Assembly: GCA_010671905.1 (NCBI GenBank)
Contig: JAAHII010000001.1
Coordinates: 1,364,001 to 1,428,000, forward strand
Source of the DNA: Leptolyngbya sp. SIOISBB
GTDB taxonomy: Bacteria; Cyanobacteriota; Cyanobacteriia; Phormidesmidales; Phormidesmidaceae
Direction: 5' to 3'
Length of the DNA: 64,000 bases
Part shown: piece after piece, positions 24,232-52,958 of the stretch
Position numbering within the stretch: the first letter of the stretch is position 1
How the letters are laid out: each line of letters starts with the position of its first letter
Notes under the pieces: model-generated
Told to the model about the DNA's origin: nothing
The model's database searches: none
What the model saw: the letters and a program-made list of their open reading frames with translations, nothing else
Made by a program: the position numbers and the translations under genes

Positions 24232-24489
24232 CTAGGTCTCGCGCCCCATGATACCTGCGTTGTTGATCAGGACGTCGATCAGCCGATTGCCTAACGCATT
24301 TTGCAACGTCGCAACGCAGCCATCATCAGACACGTCGATGCCGGTGATTGCCTCAACTCCGAGCGCGGTCATTGCGTCCGTTGCCTCCCGGCAGATACCG
24401 ATAACATCGTCACCCTGAGCGAGAAACTGTCGGCAAAGCTTAAGTCCAATTCCGTGGTTACTTCCAGTGATGGCGATAGTAGGCATAGA
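24232..24489 (-). pseudogene. SDR family oxidoreductase, 3'-truncated
   Basis: TITGSNHGIGLKLCRQFL and NNAG motifs present, but the ORF ends after NNAGIMG; no YxxxK found downstream in either shifted frame. Confidence 0.75.
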
Positions 24490-24686
24490 GTTCTCCTGTT
24501 TGGGTCGTGGTGCACTGGCGAGCTCAACGTCCGAGTACTTCAACTACGAGCCGGGCAGCTGCCGCATCCGAGTATTACTGTTGTCGATCAGGGCTCAGAC
24601 AGGCGTGCCGAGACCGCCAATAATTCCGTCATATGTCACCAGTGCTCTGGCCCGCTTGCGGAATTTCTGGCCTGGATTTCCTCGCC

Positions 24687-27552: not shown

Positions 27553-30548
27553 TTGAGCGAATTTATGAATACACCTAGTTGGGAAGTTTTTCGCTCCCGA
27601 AGCGATCAAGAAACAGTTTTTGAAAGAGATGTGGCGCGAAGGTTATTTTGCCATGAGGCTGGCGTTGAACCAGCGCTGTTAACTTGTCCTCCTAACTACC
27701 CAGGCATCGAAAATATACCGATAGAATCAACCGAGGGCTGGGTGGCCTTTCAAGCGAAGCACAGCCTCAATGGTAGCCAAAATGGTGATGCTTTCGATAG
27801 CCTCCGAAAAGTCATCAAACTTGTTGGCGACAGTGACTTCCAACTAAATAAAATCTACTGTTTTTCTTCGGGCGTAGCTCCGGCTACCCCAACGGCACAA
27901 ACCGCAGAACAGCGACGAATCGTTGCTGATTTGAGCGATGTGGGAATTGCCGTTGAATGGTACTACTCCGATCGAATTCTCACTATTCTGGAGGATGCAA
28001 CTGACCCAAACTTGGTGCGAGCCTCGCAGGCATTTTTTGAGGAGTTGCCTCAGCCTTATCTTGATCAACAAGAAAGCACAGCAAATCCAGAGGGCTTCAG
28101 ACGTTTACGTTTCAATGAGCGGCTTTCCGAATTTACCGGTCGCCTGACAGAATTGGAGCAACTGGATCAGTTCACCAATACCGATGACAACTTCTGCTGG
28201 TGGCTGGTCACAGGCCCGGGCCTATCTGGAAAATCACGCCTACTTCTGGAACATTGCCGTAGTCTTGAAAACTGGCATTGGGGTTGGCTTGAGGCCGATC
28301 TTGACGATTTTACTTTTTCTGATTGGATACCGGATCAAGACACTTTCATCGTCGTTGACTACATACTCGGTCGCGAACTACAACTTCAAAGACTATTCCA
28401 GCAAATCCGGCCTGTTAGCCGGTCAGATCGTTTTGTTCATAAAGTACGACTCATTTTGCTCGAACGCGAATACTCTGGATGGCTGCGTGCTGTCGAGCAT
28501 GCTCCGAGTATCGGCAACTGGATTGCTGAAAGAAAATTTATGCGGGACGCTCTAACGCTCGATCGCATTCCAAACGTTTTTGCCGCTATTGAAGATTTCC
28601 CCCCGGGGCAATTCATGGAAGCCATTGAGGAGTTATTGCACCGAGAAGCACAACGACGCTGGCAAGATGTTCCACAAGTGGCTTTTGACGCACTGGTTTT
28701 AGCAACTGCTTCCGGGGGCCTTTCATTAGAAGAACAAACCGGGCCGTTTCGACCAGAAACTAAATCGTACTTGGACGAGCTCAATTGCAGCGAATCGGTC
28801 GCGCAGATGATCGGGGTTGAACATTCACCTAAATTTCTACCCGCCACTTCAGCCCGATGTATTCGGTGAGCTATTTGTTCTTGAAGCCCTTCAGAACGCT
28901 AACCCAAGTTCCCGTGAGCATATCCTCCAACGTGCTTATGAGCTTAATGCATCGAGTTTAGTGAATTTCTTATATCGTTGCGCTCAATCATTCCCTGAGC
29001 ACCCTGCGCTGAGAAATGTACTTAGTGATTGGTCTTACGACAATGAGTCCCGATTGGCTTATCTTGCAGTCTTTGCCAACGGGCTGCATAGCGATACATT
29101 CACTGAAGAGCTGAGGCTGAACACCTATCGAGAAATCATGGAGGAACTTTCAGTACCCTCCGGAGATTTACTTTTTATCGAAAGAGCAATATTCGGAAAG
29201 ATACTGGCGTTATTTCCAGAAAATAACTTGCAGATCGAACCAGCTGAAATTCAACTGCTTGCTCCAGTACAAATCGCTGCGCAGCCCACTAATAACGAGG
29301 AATCAAATCCCGATATTCTTTCCTCGCTGCTTCCCGAGGAATACTGTTATGTCGTGTCAGATGCCTGGCGTCAGCTTGACGATATAAAAAAGCTCACTTT
29401 ACTCGGACCACATCTAGTGGAGATTTTTCACCACCAAATTATCAGAAGCCTGGCAGTCCACCCTGGGCAATTGGAAGTCGCACAGGAGTTGCTTTATGAG
29501 CTTGTACAAATTTTGGAACTATCAAACGGCGGTCGCTACGCCGCAACCATTATGGCCTTCCAGCACCTTTGTGCAAACGTTATTGCAGCTCTCGTGCAAT
29601 TTAGCCATAGATCCGCAGATGCGATGGATTGGGCCGACGAAATTAGGCGGCAGGCAAACGCTCTTTCGACTCTAACTCGGGAGGGACAGTGGATGATTTT
29701 CCAGTCTTCAAACTTGGACCGAATTGATATGGGTTTGACTGTAATGGTGTCCCACTATCGCCATCGGGACTACCGGTACAAACTACAACGTTTAGAAGCC
29801 ATCCGCTGCCGTAGTAATAATGAACCACTCAAGATGCTTACATACGTCCAGGCAGCAGTCGCAGCATCAAATGGCTTTGATGGGGAAGATGAAGCCCGAG
29901 AAGCGAGCACTGTTCTTGAGCGGTGTCGTGAGTACACTGCGATAGTTGGCACCCCAGAGATTGCCGCATCTTTCGCTATGATCCTTGGGAATTTAACGGG
30001 TGCTGCGACATCGTATGATCTGGGCCAAACATCTTGGGATTTCTTTGTAGAAGTTGCAGAACTTGCACGCCGTTACCCAGAGCCACAACACAAAATAGTC
30101 AATTCAGTTCTTAACAGGCTTAGCACTTATTTCCAAAACAAAATAAAGAGCGGTGATCTTGACGTGGCCAGACAGGCGTTGCTCCTTGCACGCAGCATGA
30201 TTGAATCTGCCAATACAGTTGATTATGAAGATATGCAGCGTTTATATGTAGGGGCATTTTTTGATTCACCACTTCTCCAGTTCGTGACCGGGAAGCCGAC
30301 CCTGTATGAGGAAGCTAAAGAGATGGCGCGATTTGTTGCCAGTTCGCCAGCCGTTAACTGGCAACATAATGATGCAGAATACTCATGCATTAAGTAAATA
30401 CTTCTCTGAGGGGCAGCGTGCAGTTAATGAAGGGGATCGCTCAAGAGCAGAGCGTGCTCTTGAAGTCTTGGAATTCTACTCGAACATTGATCAAACAAAC
30501 GACTACAGTCAGATCATTTCGATAATTCAAGGGCAGTTGGACACCTGA
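27553..30548 (+). pseudogene. STAND-type P-loop NTPase with N-terminal PD-(D/E)XK-like nuclease domain and helical C-terminal region; split into three collinear frames
   Basis: FERDVARRLF...GIENIPIESTEGWVAFQAKH (QxK-type RE fold), Walker A GPGLSGKS, Walker B TFIVVDY, LQPDVFGELFVLEAL continuing in the +1 frame (28817-30397), then LSKYFSEGQRAVNEGDRSRAERALEVL in the next frame (to 30548). Confidence 0.78.
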
Positions 30549-32313: not shown

Positions 32314-32958
32314 ATGAACGCTTCAGCTAAATTTTGGAACAAAGTTGCCGACGGTTATGCCAAACAACCGATCGCGGATGAAGCCGCCTATCAAAAGAAA
32401 CTCCAGGTCACACAGGAGTATTTGCAGCCCAGTATGAACGTGCTGGAATTTGGTTGCGGCACGGGTTCGACCGCGATTGTCCATGCCCCTTACGTACAGC
32501 ATATCCGAGCCATCGATTTTTTAGCCAACATGATTGCGATCGCCCAAGAAAAAGCCGCCGCCCAAAACATCCCAAACGTTACCTTTGAGCAAGCCAGCAT
32601 TGACGAGCTAAGCGTCCCTGAAGGCACTTACGATGCGGTGTTGGGCTTGAATGTTTTACACCTACTTGCCAATAAGGAAGCGGCGATCGCTAAGGTCCAC
32701 AACCTGCTCCAACCGGGCGGCGTTTTCATTACCAGTACCATCTGCCTGGGGGATACGATGGCTTGGTTTAAGCTAATTGCTCCTGTGGGCAAAGCTTTGG
32801 GACTGTTCCCATTGGTCAAGGTCTTTACGATCAACGACTTAGCGAAAAGTTTGACGGATGCGGGATTTGCGATCGATTACCAGTGGCAAGCGGGCGACTA
32901 TAAATCACCCATTGGTAACGCGAAAATCATGTTCATCGTAGCGAAGAAGACTGAATAG
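32314..32958 (+). CDS. Class I SAM-dependent methyltransferase
   Basis: VLEFGCGTGSTAI motif I; TYDAVLGLNVLHL. Confidence 0.92.
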   Translation: MNASAKFWNKVADGYAKQPIADEAAYQKKLQVTQEYLQPSMNVLEFGCGTGSTAIVHAPYVQHIRAIDFLANMIAIAQEKAAAQNIPNVTFEQASIDELSVPEGTYDAVLGLNVLHLLANKEAAIAKVHNLLQPGGVFITSTICLGDTMAWFKLIAPVGKALGLFPLVKVFTINDLAKSLTDAGFAIDYQWQAGDYKSPIGNAKIMFIVAKKTE

Positions 32959-32977: not shown

Positions 32978-33526
32978 ATGAAAAAAGTTGCTGTATTTGG
33001 CAATGCGGGCGGGGGAAAATCCACCCTCAGCCAACGTCTAGCTGAGATGACCGGCTTACCCTGGGTACCGCTGGATTCCCTCCAGTACCAACCCGGTGGC
33101 AGCGAAGTCCCCCATGCCGAGTTCAAAGCGGCTCATGATGAACTGCTGCAGCAAGAGCAGTGGATCGTCGATGGCTTTGGTTCAATCGATACCGTATGGG
33201 AACGACTGAAAGTGGCCGATACCCTGGTGTATCTCGATATGCCCGTGCTGCGGCACTACTGGTGGGTGACGAAGCGATTTCTGCAAGGGGCTTGGGTATC
33301 GCCTGCGGGTTGGCCGGAGGGGAGCTCGTTATTGAAAGGAACGCTGAAGTCCTACCCCACCGTCCGGTTGTGCCATGCCAAACTGACACCCAAATATCGG
33401 GACTATGTAGCGCAAGCGAAGGCGACCAAGCAGGTTTATCATCTGCGATCGCTCAAAGATATTGAGACGTTTTACCAGACGGTTGAAGACAAAACCAATG
33501 TCGCGACACCAAAAACTGAATCATGA
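32978..33526 (+). CDS. P-loop NTPase, adenylate kinase/topology modulation-like
   Basis: VAVFGNAGGGKSTLSQRLAE Walker A; WIVDGFGSIDTVWERL. Confidence 0.85.
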   Translation: MKKVAVFGNAGGGKSTLSQRLAEMTGLPWVPLDSLQYQPGGSEVPHAEFKAAHDELLQQEQWIVDGFGSIDTVWERLKVADTLVYLDMPVLRHYWWVTKRFLQGAWVSPAGWPEGSSLLKGTLKSYPTVRLCHAKLTPKYRDYVAQAKATKQVYHLRSLKDIETFYQTVEDKTNVATPKTES

Positions 33527-34147
33527 CTCAATCAACCAAATTTTGGGACAAAATCGCCGCTAAATACGCTAAGCAGCCCATCGCCGATGAAGCCGCTTAT
33601 CAGAAAAAACTGGCGGTCACCCGCGATTACTTTCGGCTCGACATGGAAGTGTTGGAAATCGGCTGCGGTACCGGGTCAACGGCCATCCTCCATGCCCCCT
33701 ATGTCAAGCACATCCGCGCCATTGATTTCTCTGCCAATATGATTGCGATCGCCCAGGGTAAAGCCGAGGCTGAGCACATTGAGAACGTGACCTTTGAACA
33801 GGCCACCATTGAAGATCTCGATATTCCAGATCAGAGCCTGGATGCGGTGTTGGGACTCAGCATTTTGCATTTGTTGAAAGATAGGTCGGCCGCGATCGCT
33901 CGGGTCTACACAGATGCTCAAACTGGGCGGTATCTTTGTGACCAGTACCGCCTGCATCGGCGATGCCATGAGCTAGTTTAAGCTCATCGCCCCCATTGGC
34001 CGCTTCCTCGGGGTTTTCCCCTTTGTCGCCGTTTTCACCACAGAAGAGCTGGCAGATAGCCTGACCAATACCGGATTCGAGCTGGACTACCAGTGGCAAC
34101 CCAGGAAGGACAAAGCCGTGTTCATCGTGGCCAAAAAGCCTGGATAA
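33523..34147 (+). pseudogene. Second copy of the class I methyltransferase, damaged
   Basis: High similarity to the 32314 gene; +1 shift near 33905-33914 and an in-frame TAG where the paralogue has TGG (AMS*FKLIAPIG vs AWFKLIAPVG). Confidence 0.85.
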
Positions 34148-34162
34148 ACCCAGCACGTCAAT

Positions 34163-37446: not shown

Positions 37447-39765
37447 ATGTTTGACTACCAGGTTGGCGGTAGCCTCGCCGTTGATAACCCGACCTACATT
37501 GAGCGGCAGTCCGACCGCGACCTCTACGAAGCACTGCTTAGGGGCGATCTCTGTTATGTGCTCAACAGCCGTCAGATGGGCAAGTCGAGTTTGCGACTGC
37601 GGACGCGCCACCACATTCATCAGGCGGGTAAGGGCATTTGTGCCTCGGTCGATATGACCCGCATTGGCAGTGAAAACATTACGGCCAATCAGTGGTATCA
37701 GGGCATTGCCTTTGATTTGATCCGCAGTTTGCGGCTTTACCGCCAGGTTGATTTATCGACCTGGTGGCTCGAGCAGGGCAACTTGTCCCCGGTGCAAAAG
37801 CTGGGCAACTTTTTTGAAGAACTTATTCTGGGCCGGTTTCCCGACGAGAACATTTTCATTTTCATCGACGAAATTGATAGCGTGCAGAGCCTCACGTTTC
37901 CCGTGGATGATTTCTTTGCGCTGGTGCGGTACTGCTACAACCAGCGGGTCGAAAATCCTGACTACAAACGCTTAACCTGGGCACTGTTTGGGGTAGCTTC
38001 TCCGGGTGACTTGATTAGCGACTTGAAGCGTACCCCCTTTAATGTCGGCACCGCGATCGCCCTCATGGGGTTTACCTTTGCCGAAGCGTCACCACTCTTA
38101 CCCGGCTTGGCACCCTATGTAGAACGCCCCCGTCGCATTTTGACGGCGATCTTGGAATGGACGGATGGGCAACCGTTTTTGACCCAAAAACTCTGCGCCC
38201 TGGTGCAGCAAGAAGGCCATGACTGTGGGGCAGGTCAGCTCGATATTCCGGTGGGCGAAGAAGGCAATTGGGTCGAGTGGCTCGTCCGCACCTACATCAT
38301 TGATCACTGGCAAATTCAAGATGAACCCGAGCATCTGCGCACCGTACAGCGCTATTTGCTGCAAGACCCCACCAAGGTCGGCAGACTCCTGGGACAATAT
38401 CAGCAAATCTTGCTGTCAGATGACGAAACCACCCACCAAAATGCCGAAGATTTCAATGAATTTTCTTCGCTGCTGCTGTCGGGGCTGGTGACCCAGCGAT
38501 CAGGATTTTTGCGAGTACACAACCGCACCTACAGCGAGATTTTCAACCAAACGTGGGTGCAGCAACAACTGGCCAACCTGCGCCCCTACGCGACAAACTT
38601 AAGCGCCTGGGTGAAATCAAACTACCAGGATGAATCGCAGTTGCTGCGATCGCGGGACCTCTTAGCGGCCCAGGAATGGACTCAAGACAAAAGCCTCAGC
38701 GATCTGGACTATCAATTTTTAGCGGCCTCTCAGCTCATCGATCGCCGCCACCGAGAACGGCGCATCGTCGAAATTTTGGCCATGTTGAGTTACCGTCGCG
38801 GGGAGCTGAAACCCTATTTAGAACAAATTGCGATCGCGGTCAGTGAACTCATTACCGTCGATTGGTCGATTGTCACCCTTTGCCAGGACGATCAAGAAAG
38901 GATTCTCGCCAGCAGTTTCCACCTGGGTGACGAGGCTGACAAAGCCGATAATCTGCACAGAACCGTTTCCGGCTACGTGTTCAAAACTGGCTGTCCCCTC
39001 ATGGTGGAAGATACTGCCGCTGGCCAAGGTTATGGTGCGGTGCCAGCGGGCTACCGTGCTTACTTAGGCGTGCCCCTCAAACTTTCCACGGGGGAAATCG
39101 TCGGCACCATCAGCCTGTTTCACCAAACGCCGCGTTACTTTGATGATGATGAAGCCCAACTGACCTCAATCTTTGCTGAACGCGCTGCGTCGGCGATCGA
39201 GAACTATCAGCTGCATCAAAGACTACAAGAAATGCCACTCATTCAGCCGATTGTGCCCAACACCGTCTCCTCAGAAGTCCAATCAATTTTTGAGGAAATT
39301 CAGAACGGCTTTGGCATGGTGCCCAATCTGTTTCTGACGATGGCTCATTACCCGCCTTTATTGAAAGCCGATTGGGAAAAGATGAAAGCCGTGATGATTG
39401 GCGGTAGCCTTCCCCGCAAATTGAAAGAGACGATCGCCCTGCTCATTTCTAAAGACAATGAATGTCTATATTGTGTCAAAGCTCATTCGGCGGCTTTGCG
39501 GACACTCCAAGTGGATGAGGACGTCCTCGAAAAAATCCTGGGAGGGAACTTGCACACAGCAGGATTTTCGGATCAGGAAATTACCCTGATTAACTTTGCC
39601 CGGGCCGCTAACAATCACCCCCACAATATTTCCAAGGAGCTGATTCAAAACATTTCACAGTACGGTATCAGTGATGCCGAGCTGATCGAAGCGCTGGGCG
39701 TGATGGAAATCTTTGTGGCCTTTAACAAGTTCCTCGATACGCTGGATGTGGTTATCGACTATTAG
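37447..39765 (+). CDS. AAA-like domain ATPase fused to GAF domain and C-terminal AhpD/carboxymuconolactone-decarboxylase-like domain
   Basis: NSRQMGKSSL Walker A, FIFIDEID Walker B; GAF-like middle (GYVFKTGCPLMVEDTA...YLGVPLKL); C-terminal GMVPNLFLTMAHYPPLLKADW...CLYCVKAHSAALR. Confidence 0.87.
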   Translation: MFDYQVGGSLAVDNPTYIERQSDRDLYEALLRGDLCYVLNSRQMGKSSLRLRTRHHIHQAGKGICASVDMTRIGSENITANQWYQGIAFDLIRSLRLYRQVDLSTWWLEQGNLSPVQKLGNFFEELILGRFPDENIFIFIDEIDSVQSLTFPVDDFFALVRYCYNQRVENPDYKRLTWALFGVASPGDLISDLKRTPFNVGTAIALMGFTFAEASPLLPGLAPYVERPRRILTAILEWTDGQPFLTQKLCALVQQEGHDCGAGQLDIPVGEEGNWVEWLVRTYIIDHWQIQDEPEHLRTVQRYLLQDPTKVGRLLGQYQQILLSDDETTHQNAEDFNEFSSLLLSGLVTQRSGFLRVHNRTYSEIFNQTWVQQQLANLRPYATNLSAWVKSNYQDESQLLRSRDLLAAQEWTQDKSLSDLDYQFLAASQLIDRRHRERRIVEILAMLSYRRGELKPYLEQIAIAVSELITVDWSIVTLCQDDQERILASSFHLGDEADKADNLHRTVSGYVFKTGCPLMVEDTAAGQGYGAVPAGYRAYLGVPLKLSTGEIVGTISLFHQTPRYFDDDEAQLTSIFAERAASAIENYQLHQRLQEMPLIQPIVPNTVSSEVQSIFEEIQNGFGMVPNLFLTMAHYPPLLKADWEKMKAVMIGGSLPRKLKETIALLISKDNECLYCVKAHSAALRTLQVDEDVLEKILGGNLHTAGFSDQEITLINFARAANNHPHNISKELIQNISQYGISDAELIEALGVMEIFVAFNKFLDTLDVVIDY

Positions 39766-41620: not shown

Positions 41621-42463
41621 CGTGATTGATTTGAATTTTTGAGTTTGAACTTTTGGATCTCAGAAGTCAGGGGTTGAGATCAGACGATCGCTAATCGTTG
41701 TGAATCGCTAGTGACAGCTGCTGCTCCGCCCCCTAGCTCCAGATTGCGATCTGGAGGGCATTCACCATGATTTTTGATTCCTTGGAACACTCAAGATTCT
41801 GTCGGAGATGGAGATAGTGTCCGGCCCCAGCGTAAAGAATCTATGTCTACAGCAATGACTCGCAATACCCATCCCTAGTTTTCCGAGACTGCTAGCAGCA
41901 CCCACACGTCAACAGTTGCCCCCAGTTATCAAGGCGCGAATAGCGGCGATCGCGGCCTCGTGAAAAAACCTGCTTCGCCTAACATTCAGCCCCATACGTT
42001 ACCCCCATAGTCGCCATCAGCCACTTGTGGTGTTCCCTCATGACGTACCAGGGCAAACCAGTGGTAGGCCAACAGTTCAACTCTGATTCACCCACTCGCA
42101 AGGGCGATCGCCCAAAGTCGGAAAAGAAATCCACCCTTGCTAAGCGCTGCTATCAACGACTCAGGGCGACTGGCAAAATGTGCCCGAGTCCCAAACAGCT
42201 GGCTAATGTCAAGCCAATACTCTTGATACCGATCACCACGATGCTCCCCCTCTGGTGAGACCATGACTGGGGTATCTATATCCCAACTGCACATTCAGGT
42301 TAGAGGCTCCTCTAACCCACTACAGCCTAAAAAAATCGCACCCTCCCCTGACAGCGCTGATGCCTCTCCCGGCTTTGTTGGAAATTGCTGGAACTTCAGA
42401 TCCAGTGTAATGGAGGGGTCTTTCAATCTTTTACGATGGCCTTGTAACGGAAAAGGAACGGAG

Positions 42464-43819
42464 ATGTCCGCGGAAGAAGCCTTGGCTCTACTCGATCAAC
42501 TCTTGCCGGTCACCCTTAGCAACCTGCAAGAGACGGTGTTTTGCCAGGTTTGGGAAGACAAAACCTATGCCGAAATTGCGGATGAGTATAACTACGAGCA
42601 CAGCTATATCCGCGATATCGGCTTTCGCCTATGGCAAATCCTCTCTGAAGCTTTAGGCGAGAAGGTCTCAAAAAGTAACGTCAAGGCTTTGCTAGGTCGC
42701 TATGCCCGTAGTCAAGCAGCCTCAGCGCCTCGACCCGTGGCGAGCCCGCTCCCCGCTGCTGCGCCATACTCATCTACAGACATCGCCTCACTAGAGTTTC
42801 CGAATGGCCCCGTACCGCTCAATTCTCGCCTGTATATTGAACGGCCGCCGATCGAAACCAGAACCTTTGCGGAGGTGCTCAAACCGGGCAGCTTGATTCG
42901 GTTGAAAGGCCCCCGACAGATGGGCAAAACTTCTTTGCTCAGACGGATTCTCCACCACGCCAAAGTGCATGATATTGAGGTGGTGCCGCTCAGTCTGCAT
43001 CGAGTTGATCAAGCGACTCTACAAGACTTAGACCGATTTTTACGCTGGTTCTGCGCCAATGTCAGCCATCAATTGGGCGTTACCCCCAAGCTAGATGACT
43101 ACTGGAATGCCGATATTGGCAGCAAGGTGAGTTGCACCCTATATCTTGAAGAGTATCTGCTAAAGCAAATTCAAACTCCCGTGGTCATTGCGATCGACGA
43201 GGTCAATGAACTGTTTCAATTTTCTCAGATTTCTGCTGAGTTCTTGCCGCTGTTACGCTCCTGGTATGAGGATGCGAAAGAAATTGACGAATGGAGAAAA
43301 GTTCGCTGGATTCTATCCCATGCCACCGACATTTATGTGCCGCTTCAGATCAAACAATCTCCCTTCAACGTCGGGTTATCCATTCCCTTACCAGAATTTT
43401 CGATTCTCCAAATTCAAGATTTAGTCGAACGACACGGCTTGCAAGATCTCGTAGGAGATAACGGCATTAGCGAATTGATGCCTTTATTAGAGGTCATCAG
43501 CTGTCGTCCTGGCTTAGTCAGGCTAGCCTTGTATCACCTGAGTCAGCACAACATGGCAGTTGATGAGTTGGTCGCCAATGCGCACACTCAGTCAGGTATC
43601 TACAACGATCATCTCCGTCATCTGCTCGCGGCGATTCATCCTTATCAGGATCTCCAGTCTGCGTTGTTAGATGTGATCGCTTCAGAAGGGCCGCTAGAAC
43701 TGCCGCCGATGGTGGCTTATCGTTTAGAAAGCATTGGCCTCATCAAGCTCGAAGGCAACCTGGCCATCGTCAGTTGCGGGCTCTACAGTAAGTTTTTCTC
43801 ACAATATCTTTCTCGGTAA
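42464..43819 (+). CDS. AAA-like domain ATPase with N-terminal HTH of the vWA-MoxR-associated type
   Basis: N-terminus LSNLQETVFCQVWEDKTYAEIADEYNYEHSYIRDIGFRLWQ.LSEALGEKV; LKGPRQMGKTSLLRRI Walker A; VVIAIDEVNELF Walker B; ATG 42464 preferred to 42263. Confidence 0.87.
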   Translation: MSAEEALALLDQLLPVTLSNLQETVFCQVWEDKTYAEIADEYNYEHSYIRDIGFRLWQILSEALGEKVSKSNVKALLGRYARSQAASAPRPVASPLPAAAPYSSTDIASLEFPNGPVPLNSRLYIERPPIETRTFAEVLKPGSLIRLKGPRQMGKTSLLRRILHHAKVHDIEVVPLSLHRVDQATLQDLDRFLRWFCANVSHQLGVTPKLDDYWNADIGSKVSCTLYLEEYLLKQIQTPVVIAIDEVNELFQFSQISAEFLPLLRSWYEDAKEIDEWRKVRWILSHATDIYVPLQIKQSPFNVGLSIPLPEFSILQIQDLVERHGLQDLVGDNGISELMPLLEVISCRPGLVRLALYHLSQHNMAVDELVANAHTQSGIYNDHLRHLLAAIHPYQDLQSALLDVIASEGPLELPPMVAYRLESIGLIKLEGNLAIVSCGLYSKFFSQYLSR

Positions 43820-51159: not shown

Positions 51160-51833
51160 GACTAGCGTGGGTAAAACACAGATGAGGATTAAGCGTGCTC
51201 TGTCACGCTGATTCACAGCGCATTGATGCCTGGTCTGTCTGCTGGTTTTGCTCAAACCAATGGGCGATGGAGGAACCATAGTGCCAACCAACTTTTGCCC
51301 CAGTTTTCCATCAAAAGCTAAGATTCAGATCAAGATTTTTGATGTGTAGATATTTCAGTCATAAGTTCTTGATAATTAAAGGCTACTTTAGCTGCCGTCT
51401 TTCAAAGCCGCTTACCGCCCTTCAGAACTAGACTTAAGAGCATGGCAAGATTCCGACAGATCACACGTTTTGGTACTTCTAAACTACCTAGTAGTGTGTT
51501 TTTTAGGTAAATTCTGTCGGATTTTTACTGAAAAGGAGTGGTAGTCACCTGGTTTGTGCAGCTACAATCATGTGAGGCAGGTCACAAACTCAGATTCAGA
51601 ACGGTCTGGCTGACTTGCTGCCCACCTAAAAGGTTTTTTCGTTTAGCTCTACACATTGACTGGTTTCTGTCTTTATCTTTGAAGACTTGTTCTGGCCTCG
51701 TCTAAGTATGTTGGTTAAAGCTTTCGCGCATTTGACAACATCTTGCCCTGAGGTCATGACAATAACGGGATGTTAAGCTAAACGGGCCTTTGATTTGAAA
51801 GCATCACGCACGAAGGAGCACGAGGAACGCGGC

Positions 51834-52958
51834 ATGACTCAAGCGAAAGAATTGCTCGGGGCAATTAAGCCACAAAACGAGTTAGAGCTTTTAATTGATA
51901 GCGATAACAGCTCATCCAAATTTGACGATTCTGACGATGCTGGTGCAGCCAAAGCTCCTGCAAAAGCAGCCAAGGGCAAGACAACTCGCCGTAGTCAAAC
52001 GAAGAAGAAGCACTACACGGAAGATTCTATTCGCCTCTATCTCCAGGAAATTGGCCGCATTCGCCTCTTGCGTGCCGAAGAAGAGATTGAACTTGCGCGT
52101 AAGATTGCTGATTTGCTTGAACTTGAGCGCATTCGCGATGAGTTAATGGATGGTCTCGATCATGAGCCCACTGATGCTGAGTGGGCAGGAGCTGTTGATA
52201 TGCCACTCCTGGCTTTTCAGAAGCGCTTACATTTGGGTCGGCGAGCTAAAGACAAGATGGTACAGTCGAACCTTCGGCTCGTGGTCTCCATTGCTAAGAA
52301 GTACATGAACCGTGGCCTATCTTTCCAAGATTTGATTCAGGAAGGTAGTCTAGGACTGATTCGGGCCGCTGAGAAGTTTGATCACGAGAAAGGTTATAAG
52401 TTCTCTACTTACGCTACCTGGTGGATTCGTCAAGCAATTACTCGGGCGATCGCGGATCAATCTCGTACTATTCGTCTCCCAGTTCATCTGTACGAAACGA
52501 TTTCTCGTATTAAGAAGACGACTAAGCTGCTATCTCAAGAGTTGGGCCGCAAACCGACTGAAGAAGAGATTGCAACTAGCATGGAGATGACGATCGAGAA
52601 GCTGCGCTTCATTGCTAAGTCTGCGCAGTTACCGATTTCTTTGGAAACTCCCATTGGTAAAGAAGAAGACTCTCGTCTGGGTGATTTCATCGAATCGGAT
52701 GGCGAGACTCCAGAAGATGAAGTTTCCAAGAGCCTACTGCGGGAAGACTTAGAAGGTGTTTTAGGCACCCTCAGTCCTCGTGAGCGCGATGTTCTCCGCT
52801 TAAGATATGGTCTCGACGATGGTCGGATGAAGACCTTAGAAGAGATTGGTCAGACTTTTAACGTTACTCGTGAACGTATTCGTCAGATTGAAGCCAAAGC
52901 CCTCCGCAAGTTGCGTCATCCTAACCGCAATAGCGTGCTGAAAGAGTACATCCGCTAA
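51834..52958 (+). CDS. sigA: Primary (group 1) RNA polymerase sigma factor
   Basis: [84 protein letters not shown] track start 51795, ATG 51834 preferred. Confidence 0.95.

What the first reader, a model, noticed from the sequence alone, without database searches (positions are those of the whole stretch)
27553..30548. Nuclease-STAND NTPase that looks like an antiviral effector, read in three collinear frames
Seen: an N-terminal E...IE...QxK pattern (FERDVARRLF / GIENIPIES / GWVAFQAKH), Walker A GPGLSGKS, Walker B TFIVVDY, then a long helical C-terminal half that follows the usual 'PDVFGELFVLEAL' post-ATPase segment. Known: restriction-endonuclease-like domains fused to STAND ATPases and helical sensors are the layout of Avs-type and related defence proteins. 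Inference: this is a defence effector; its C-terminal half did not match any family I could name. Two +1 shifts (about 28830 and 30395) split it, so it is either a decaying gene or two assembly indels.
Basis: partly seen in the sequence, partly recalled or inferred. Interest (0 to 1): 0.72.

Follow-up and report, generated by a model that had tools for sequence, protein, structure and literature searches.

The report
Broken nuclease-STAND phage-defence gene
This is the remnant of a bacterial antiviral alarm protein (a DNA-cutting head like that of the known defence protein Avs4, an ATP switch and a helical sensor tail), but this copy is split by two frame shifts and lacks part of its switch, so it is probably an ordinary dying defence gene.

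Summary
Residues 1-168 are an Avs4-type PD-(D/E)XK nuclease: E20, IE49 and QxK65 align with E. coli Avs4, and PADLOC Avs4 matches at 2e-5. Residues 190-424 are a STAND-type P-loop ATPase. The remainder is predicted helical, with no recognisable relative. Homologues of the ATPase read straight through the first break, so 28869 is not a natural end.

One thing is new. This copy is also about 40-65 residues short in the ATPase's helical lid, lacking a PL-type motif that nearly all homologues keep. Two frame shifts plus this in-frame deletion favour real decay over two assembly slips; sequencing error is not excluded for the frame shifts.

It is not an Avs4: 17.6 bits against a 1500-bit cut-off, and a different ATPase and tail. 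The ATPase is a promiscuous module; relatives carry other heads and TPR or ankyrin tails. The exact pairing was not found in any other genome searched. Mechanism inferred: sensor-triggered assembly and DNA degradation, probably no longer working here. Known kind, low to moderate interest.

The parts
27565..28836 (+). First frame: nuclease domain plus the main part of the STAND ATPase (residues 1-424)
   Evidence: ORF; codon bias; homologues
27565..28068 (+). Avs4-type PD-(D/E)XK nuclease domain (residues 1-168): E20 at 27622, IE49 at 27706-27711, QxK63-65 at 27751-27759
   Evidence: PADLOC Avs4 2.3e-5, NCBIfam Avs4 4.2e-4, alignment with E. coli and Moraxella Avs4-type N-termini, control with shuffles
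28132..28836 (+). STAND-type P-loop NTPase core (residues 190-424)
   Evidence: AAA_16 6.6e-6 and nSTAND_NTPase5 0.0036, both below curated cut-offs; 46 homologous loci; model pLDDT above 90 over most of residues 190-330
28213..28236 (+). Walker A GPGLSGKS
   Evidence: G222 and K223 invariant in the 24-sequence alignment
28345..28362 (+). Walker B FIVVDY
   Evidence: D265 invariant in the 24-sequence alignment
28549..28626 (+). Site of the missing lid segment: 26 residues here, 68-91 in the 19 ATPase homologues that span it; their PL-type motif (RPL, NPL, TPL or CPL in 17 of 19) is absent
   Evidence: on alignment A4
28830..28840 (+). First frame break, frame 1 to frame 2
   Evidence: codon bias; homologue continuous across it
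28838..30385 (+). Second frame: end of the ATPase module (YPPLQPDVFGELFVLEAL, about 28838-28891), then a predicted all-helical tail
   Evidence: ORF; homology of the first part; single-sequence model mean pLDDT 49, helices only apart from two very short strands
30386..30395 (+). Second frame break, frame 2 to frame 0
   Evidence: codon bias; no homologue covers this point
30393..30548 (+). Third frame: last 51 residues and the stop
   Evidence: ORF; codon bias

Best explanation
27565-30548 is a recently damaged, probably horizontally acquired gene for an NLR-like (STAND) antiviral effector. In its intact ancestor the helical C-terminal tail would hold the protein off until it bound an invader product. 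ATP-driven rearrangement and assembly of the STAND core would then bring the Avs4-type PD-(D/E)XK nuclease heads together to cut DNA, host and phage alike, stopping infection at the cost of the cell. In the genome as assembled the product is at most the nuclease plus a truncated ATPase without its sensor, so the defence is most likely off. Shown: domain order, nuclease motifs, P-loop core, the two frame breaks and the missing lid segment. Inferred: nuclease activity, trigger, assembly and loss of function.
For: N-terminus collinear with Avs4 nuclease domains, with the E...IE...QxK residues conserved. P-loop core with 46 homologous loci. Homologues have variable heads (Cap4-type nuclease in L015; no recognised enzyme in several) and repeat tails (TPR in L014, ankyrin in L024; annotated TPR in the Streptomyces protein), the effector-switch-sensor layout stated for STAND proteins in PMC12931631. 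All-helical tail. Homologue continuous over the first break. Missing lid segment. No match in any other genome among 60 relatives or 391 drawn from the class, and weaker codon bias than an intact window ORF, fit recent acquisition. Avs1-Avs4 nuclease effectors cause altruistic death by cleaving phage and host genomes (PMC12931631).
Against: No anti-phage data exist for this ATPase lineage among the sources consulted. The immediate neighbours (LysR regulator, Uma2, methyltransferases) are not a recognised defence island. The N-terminal match is weak in absolute terms and its model is of medium or low confidence. Only two indels and no nonsense codons over about 3 kb also fits sequencing error.
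Confidence: 0.66

Rival explanations
1. The gene is intact in the living cell: the two frame breaks are assembly indels, and the shorter lid is a natural feature of this lineage.
For: Only two breaks, all three segments free of stops and with coding bias; no nonsense codon in the reading path; a two-contig 8.3 Mb assembly could be long-read, where indels are common.
Against: Neither break lies in a long homopolymer. The missing lid segment is not a sequencing-error type of change and removes a motif kept in nearly all homologues compared. A neighbouring methyltransferase copy is also broken, with both a frame shift and an in-frame stop.
Confidence: 0.25
2. The protein is a STAND-type regulator or switch without an antiviral role, its nuclease-like domain being a DNA-binding or inactive relic.
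For: No recognised defence genes beside it; STAND proteins also include transcription regulators (general knowledge).
Against: All the catalytic-type residues of the Avs4 nuclease domain are kept, and homologues of the same ATPase carry other effector-type heads such as a Cap4-type nuclease.
Confidence: 0.07
3. Two programmed +1 frame shifts, or a natural split into separate proteins.
For: Both breaks go the same way (+1), and each downstream frame has possible start codons.
Against: The homologous region is one chain in the Rhodobacteraceae protein and others. The first break cuts within the conserved ATPase module. No known shift signal was sought or seen.
Confidence: 0.02

Closest known systems
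Avs4 (AVAST type 4 anti-phage nuclease; NF041815, PDLC02169; structure 8DGF)
   Same: N-terminal PD-(D/E)XK nuclease with the same E...IE...QxK pattern, followed by a P-loop STAND ATPase and a long helical C-terminus; best structural match of the model, although two Avs4-type rows were in the alignment used for the model.
   Different: Far below the family cut-off (17.6 against 1500 bits). About 990 residues instead of about 1590. The ATPase belongs to another lineage, and the tail shows no relation to the Avs4 sensor.
nSTAND_NTPase5 / AAA_16-type STAND proteins with variable N-termini and TPR or ankyrin tails (e.g. QIE43105.1, WP_331747403.1, loci L007-L052)
   Same: Homologous ATPase core with WW..TG.G..GKSRL, FxVxDY and the QPD..GE..VLEAL segment after the core.
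   Different: None carries the Avs4-type nuclease head or a tail similar to this one; the homologues that span the lid have the segment that is missing here.
Cap4-type nuclease fused to the same STAND core (Micromonospora L015; L020 is a near-identical protein)
   Same: PD-(D/E)XK nuclease head on the same switch, with a TPR-like tail.
   Different: The head is of the CBASS Cap4 type, not the Avs4 type.

Membership tests
Avs4 | Whole-protein match above the curated NCBIfam cut-off (1500 bits) | tested here: not met
   17.6 bits, residues 6-139 only
Avs4 | N-terminal Avs4-type nuclease domain | tested here: met
   PADLOC 2.3e-5; collinear catalytic residues; best hit against ORFs and shuffles
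Avs4 | Avs4 C-terminal portal-sensing region | tested here: not met
   Second and third frames give no PADLOC match at E up to 1; the second frame gives no NCBIfam match
STAND NTPases | P-loop ATPase core with Walker A and Walker B | tested here: met
STAND NTPases | Conserved motif in the helical lid (PL-type motif of this family; equating it with the STAND GxP motif is inference) | tested here: not met
   Segment absent in this copy, 26 against 68-91 residues in 19 homologues
STAND NTPases | N-terminal effector, central NTPase, C-terminal repeat sensor | tested here: inconclusive
   Order met by sequence; tail only predicted helical, at low confidence
Pfam nSTAND_NTPase5 (PF25199) | Score above the gathering cut-off of 34 bits | tested here: not met
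   17.6 bits; homologues P0001 and P0002 reach 29.6-32.4 bits
Anti-phage defence system | Protection against phage | not testable with these tools
   Needs an experiment

The most novel reading that the evidence does not exclude
An otherwise undescribed Avs-like lineage in which an Avs4-type nuclease is driven by a different STAND switch and an unrelated helical sensor that would recognise a different invader signal; this window holds a damaged copy.
Probability: 0.3. Interest if true: 0.45.

Novelty: new member of a known kind. Interest (0 to 1): 0.27.

Why it matters
It is another case of nuclease heads being swapped between STAND switches: the head known from E. coli Avs4 sits here, in a genome far from E. 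coli, on a different chassis. If intact relatives exist, their tail is an unstudied sensor. This copy itself seems to be decaying, which illustrates how costly defence genes can be lost.

Tried and rejected
Whole-protein relatives: none in viral contigs, phage records, 60 relatives or 391 genomes of the class; plasmids gave matches to the ATPase core only. A weak N-terminal hit in G519 proved to be a UvrD-like helicase. The hit in L122 lies in a coiled-coil protein. An N-terminal profile search of viral contigs with the window domain first found nothing. A plasmid hit at E=5 to an ABC-three-component protein was too weak to use. The PADLOC hit to MzaA at 51795-52955 is an ordinary sigma-70 factor. 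Programmed frame shifting was considered and rejected because homologues are single-frame. A fold search of the tail model was not run, because its confidence is too low to be meaningful.

Full report
What is there. The window contains three overlapping collinear open frames on the + strand, 27553-28869, 28817-30397 and 30306-30548. The likely start is ATG 27565; the reading path is 27565-28836, 28838-30385 and about 30393-30545. The coding bias is weaker than in a control window ORF, and the gene is less G+C-rich (0.475) than the window (0.520); with no match in any other genome among 60 relatives or among 391 genomes drawn from the class, this suggests horizontal acquisition.

Nuclease domain. 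Residues 1-168 match the PADLOC Avs4 model at 2.3e-5 when scanned alone and the NCBIfam Avs4 model at 4.2e-4 over residues 6-139. Avs4 proteins were fetched from E. coli plasmids, and a related N-terminus from a Moraxella plasmid. In the alignment the residues expected of a PD-(D/E)XK enzyme are invariant: F19-E20, I48-E49 and Q63-x-K65. As a control, a profile of three Avs4-type N-termini found this ORF as the best of 806 window ORFs and 2000 shuffles, E=0.0035 against 2.1 for the next. The predicted secondary structure, a helix, short strands around residues 48-64, then helix, strand, helix, strand, fits the fold, but local pLDDT is only about 37-83.

ATPase. Residues 190-424 carry Walker A and Walker B and match AAA_16 (6.6e-6) and nSTAND_NTPase5 (0.0036), both below the curated cut-offs. 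A plasmid search gave a Rhodobacteraceae protein and three Streptomyces proteins; a scan of genome contigs with a three-sequence alignment gave 46 loci in many phyla. The core models at pLDDT above 90 over most of residues 190-330. The best PDB matches are the two chains of Avs4 bound to a phage portal, followed by AAA+ proteins. Two caveats apply: two Avs4-type rows were in the alignment, and the TM-scores of about 0.3 over the whole query reflect flexible domain placement and low confidence outside the core.

The first break is not a natural end. The Rhodobacteraceae protein aligns through the break, including PPMQPDLLAEYVVLEAL against PPLQPDVFGELFVLEAL, in one alignment of 418 columns at E=5e-17. 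Other homologues keep the equivalent QPD or EPD...GE segment. No homologue covers the second break, so there the case rests on codon bias alone.

A third lesion. In the alignment of 24 sequences the stretch between ALTLD (residue 329) and EELLHREAQRRW (residue 355) is 26 residues here, against 68-91 in the 19 ATPase homologues that span it and 52 in the two Avs4-type rows. The missing block contains a helix with a PL-type motif (RPL, NPL, TPL or CPL in 17 of 19; L008 has RALY and L032 RVLV at that place). I take it to be the counterpart of the nucleotide-contacting GxP motif of STAND proteins; that equation is inference. An in-frame loss of roughly 40-65 residues is not a typical sequencing slip. 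With two frame breaks, and a broken methyltransferase copy nearby at 33523-33981 with both a frame shift and an in-frame stop, real decay is the better reading. The absence of nonsense codons means it is recent. Assembly error for the two frame shifts cannot be excluded without reads.

Tail. The second frame after the ATPase has no convincing Pfam, PADLOC or NCBIfam match and no match in plasmid or phage records. A single-sequence model is almost entirely helical, mean pLDDT 49, with the last 120 residues mostly at 65-80. It is plausibly a helical-repeat sensor, but this is not shown.

How it would work. [quoted passage not shown] REase-fold effectors, including Mrr-like ones, are recorded in NTP-dependent conflict systems (PMC7159879). 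By analogy the intact ancestor would have been an abortive-infection effector with an unknown trigger. As it stands, the first frame encodes a nuclease with a truncated ATPase and no sensor.

Relation to known families. It is not an Avs4, because the whole-protein cut-off and the sensor region both fail. It is best described as an Avs4-type nuclease head on a different STAND chassis. The chassis is modular: homologues have a Cap4-type nuclease head (L015, PADLOC up to 4e-88), TPR or ankyrin tails (L014, L024), or heads with no recognised domain. In the homologous loci and other genome stretches tested, no protein carried both the Avs4-type head and this ATPase. The genome scan used only two short patterns and public collections are incomplete, so this pairing should not be called unique.

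Noticed in passing
window 33523-34160: A second copy of the methyltransferase at 32314-32958 is broken by a frame shift and an in-frame stop; a local decayed duplicate.
   Followed up: partly
window 24232-24543: A short-chain dehydrogenase fragment (matches positions 2-89 of the 195-position profile), another apparently truncated gene near the finding.
   Followed up: no
L015:206-2899 (Micromonospora qiuiae); L020 is a near-identical protein: Cap4-type nuclease (normally the CBASS effector head) fused to the same STAND core and a TPR-like tail instead of a SAVED domain.
   Followed up: partly
L126 (ORF of 772 aa): Same STAND core behind another restriction-endonuclease-like N-terminus (GVDLFDDDTIYLCYAPQTK), of a type not identified.
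   Followed up: no
L121 from 3862 (also L115), same class as the window genome: A 1362-residue protein with a distant relative of this nuclease domain (PGVE...GWQCK) ahead of a different STAND-like ATPase.
   Followed up: no
window 37447-39765 and 42263-43819: Two genes with AAA_35 ATPase domains, one with GAF and carboxymuconolactone-decarboxylase-like regions.
   Followed up: no
window 51795-52958: The PADLOC match to MzaA here is a primary-type sigma-70 factor, a false lead of that model.
   Followed up: yes
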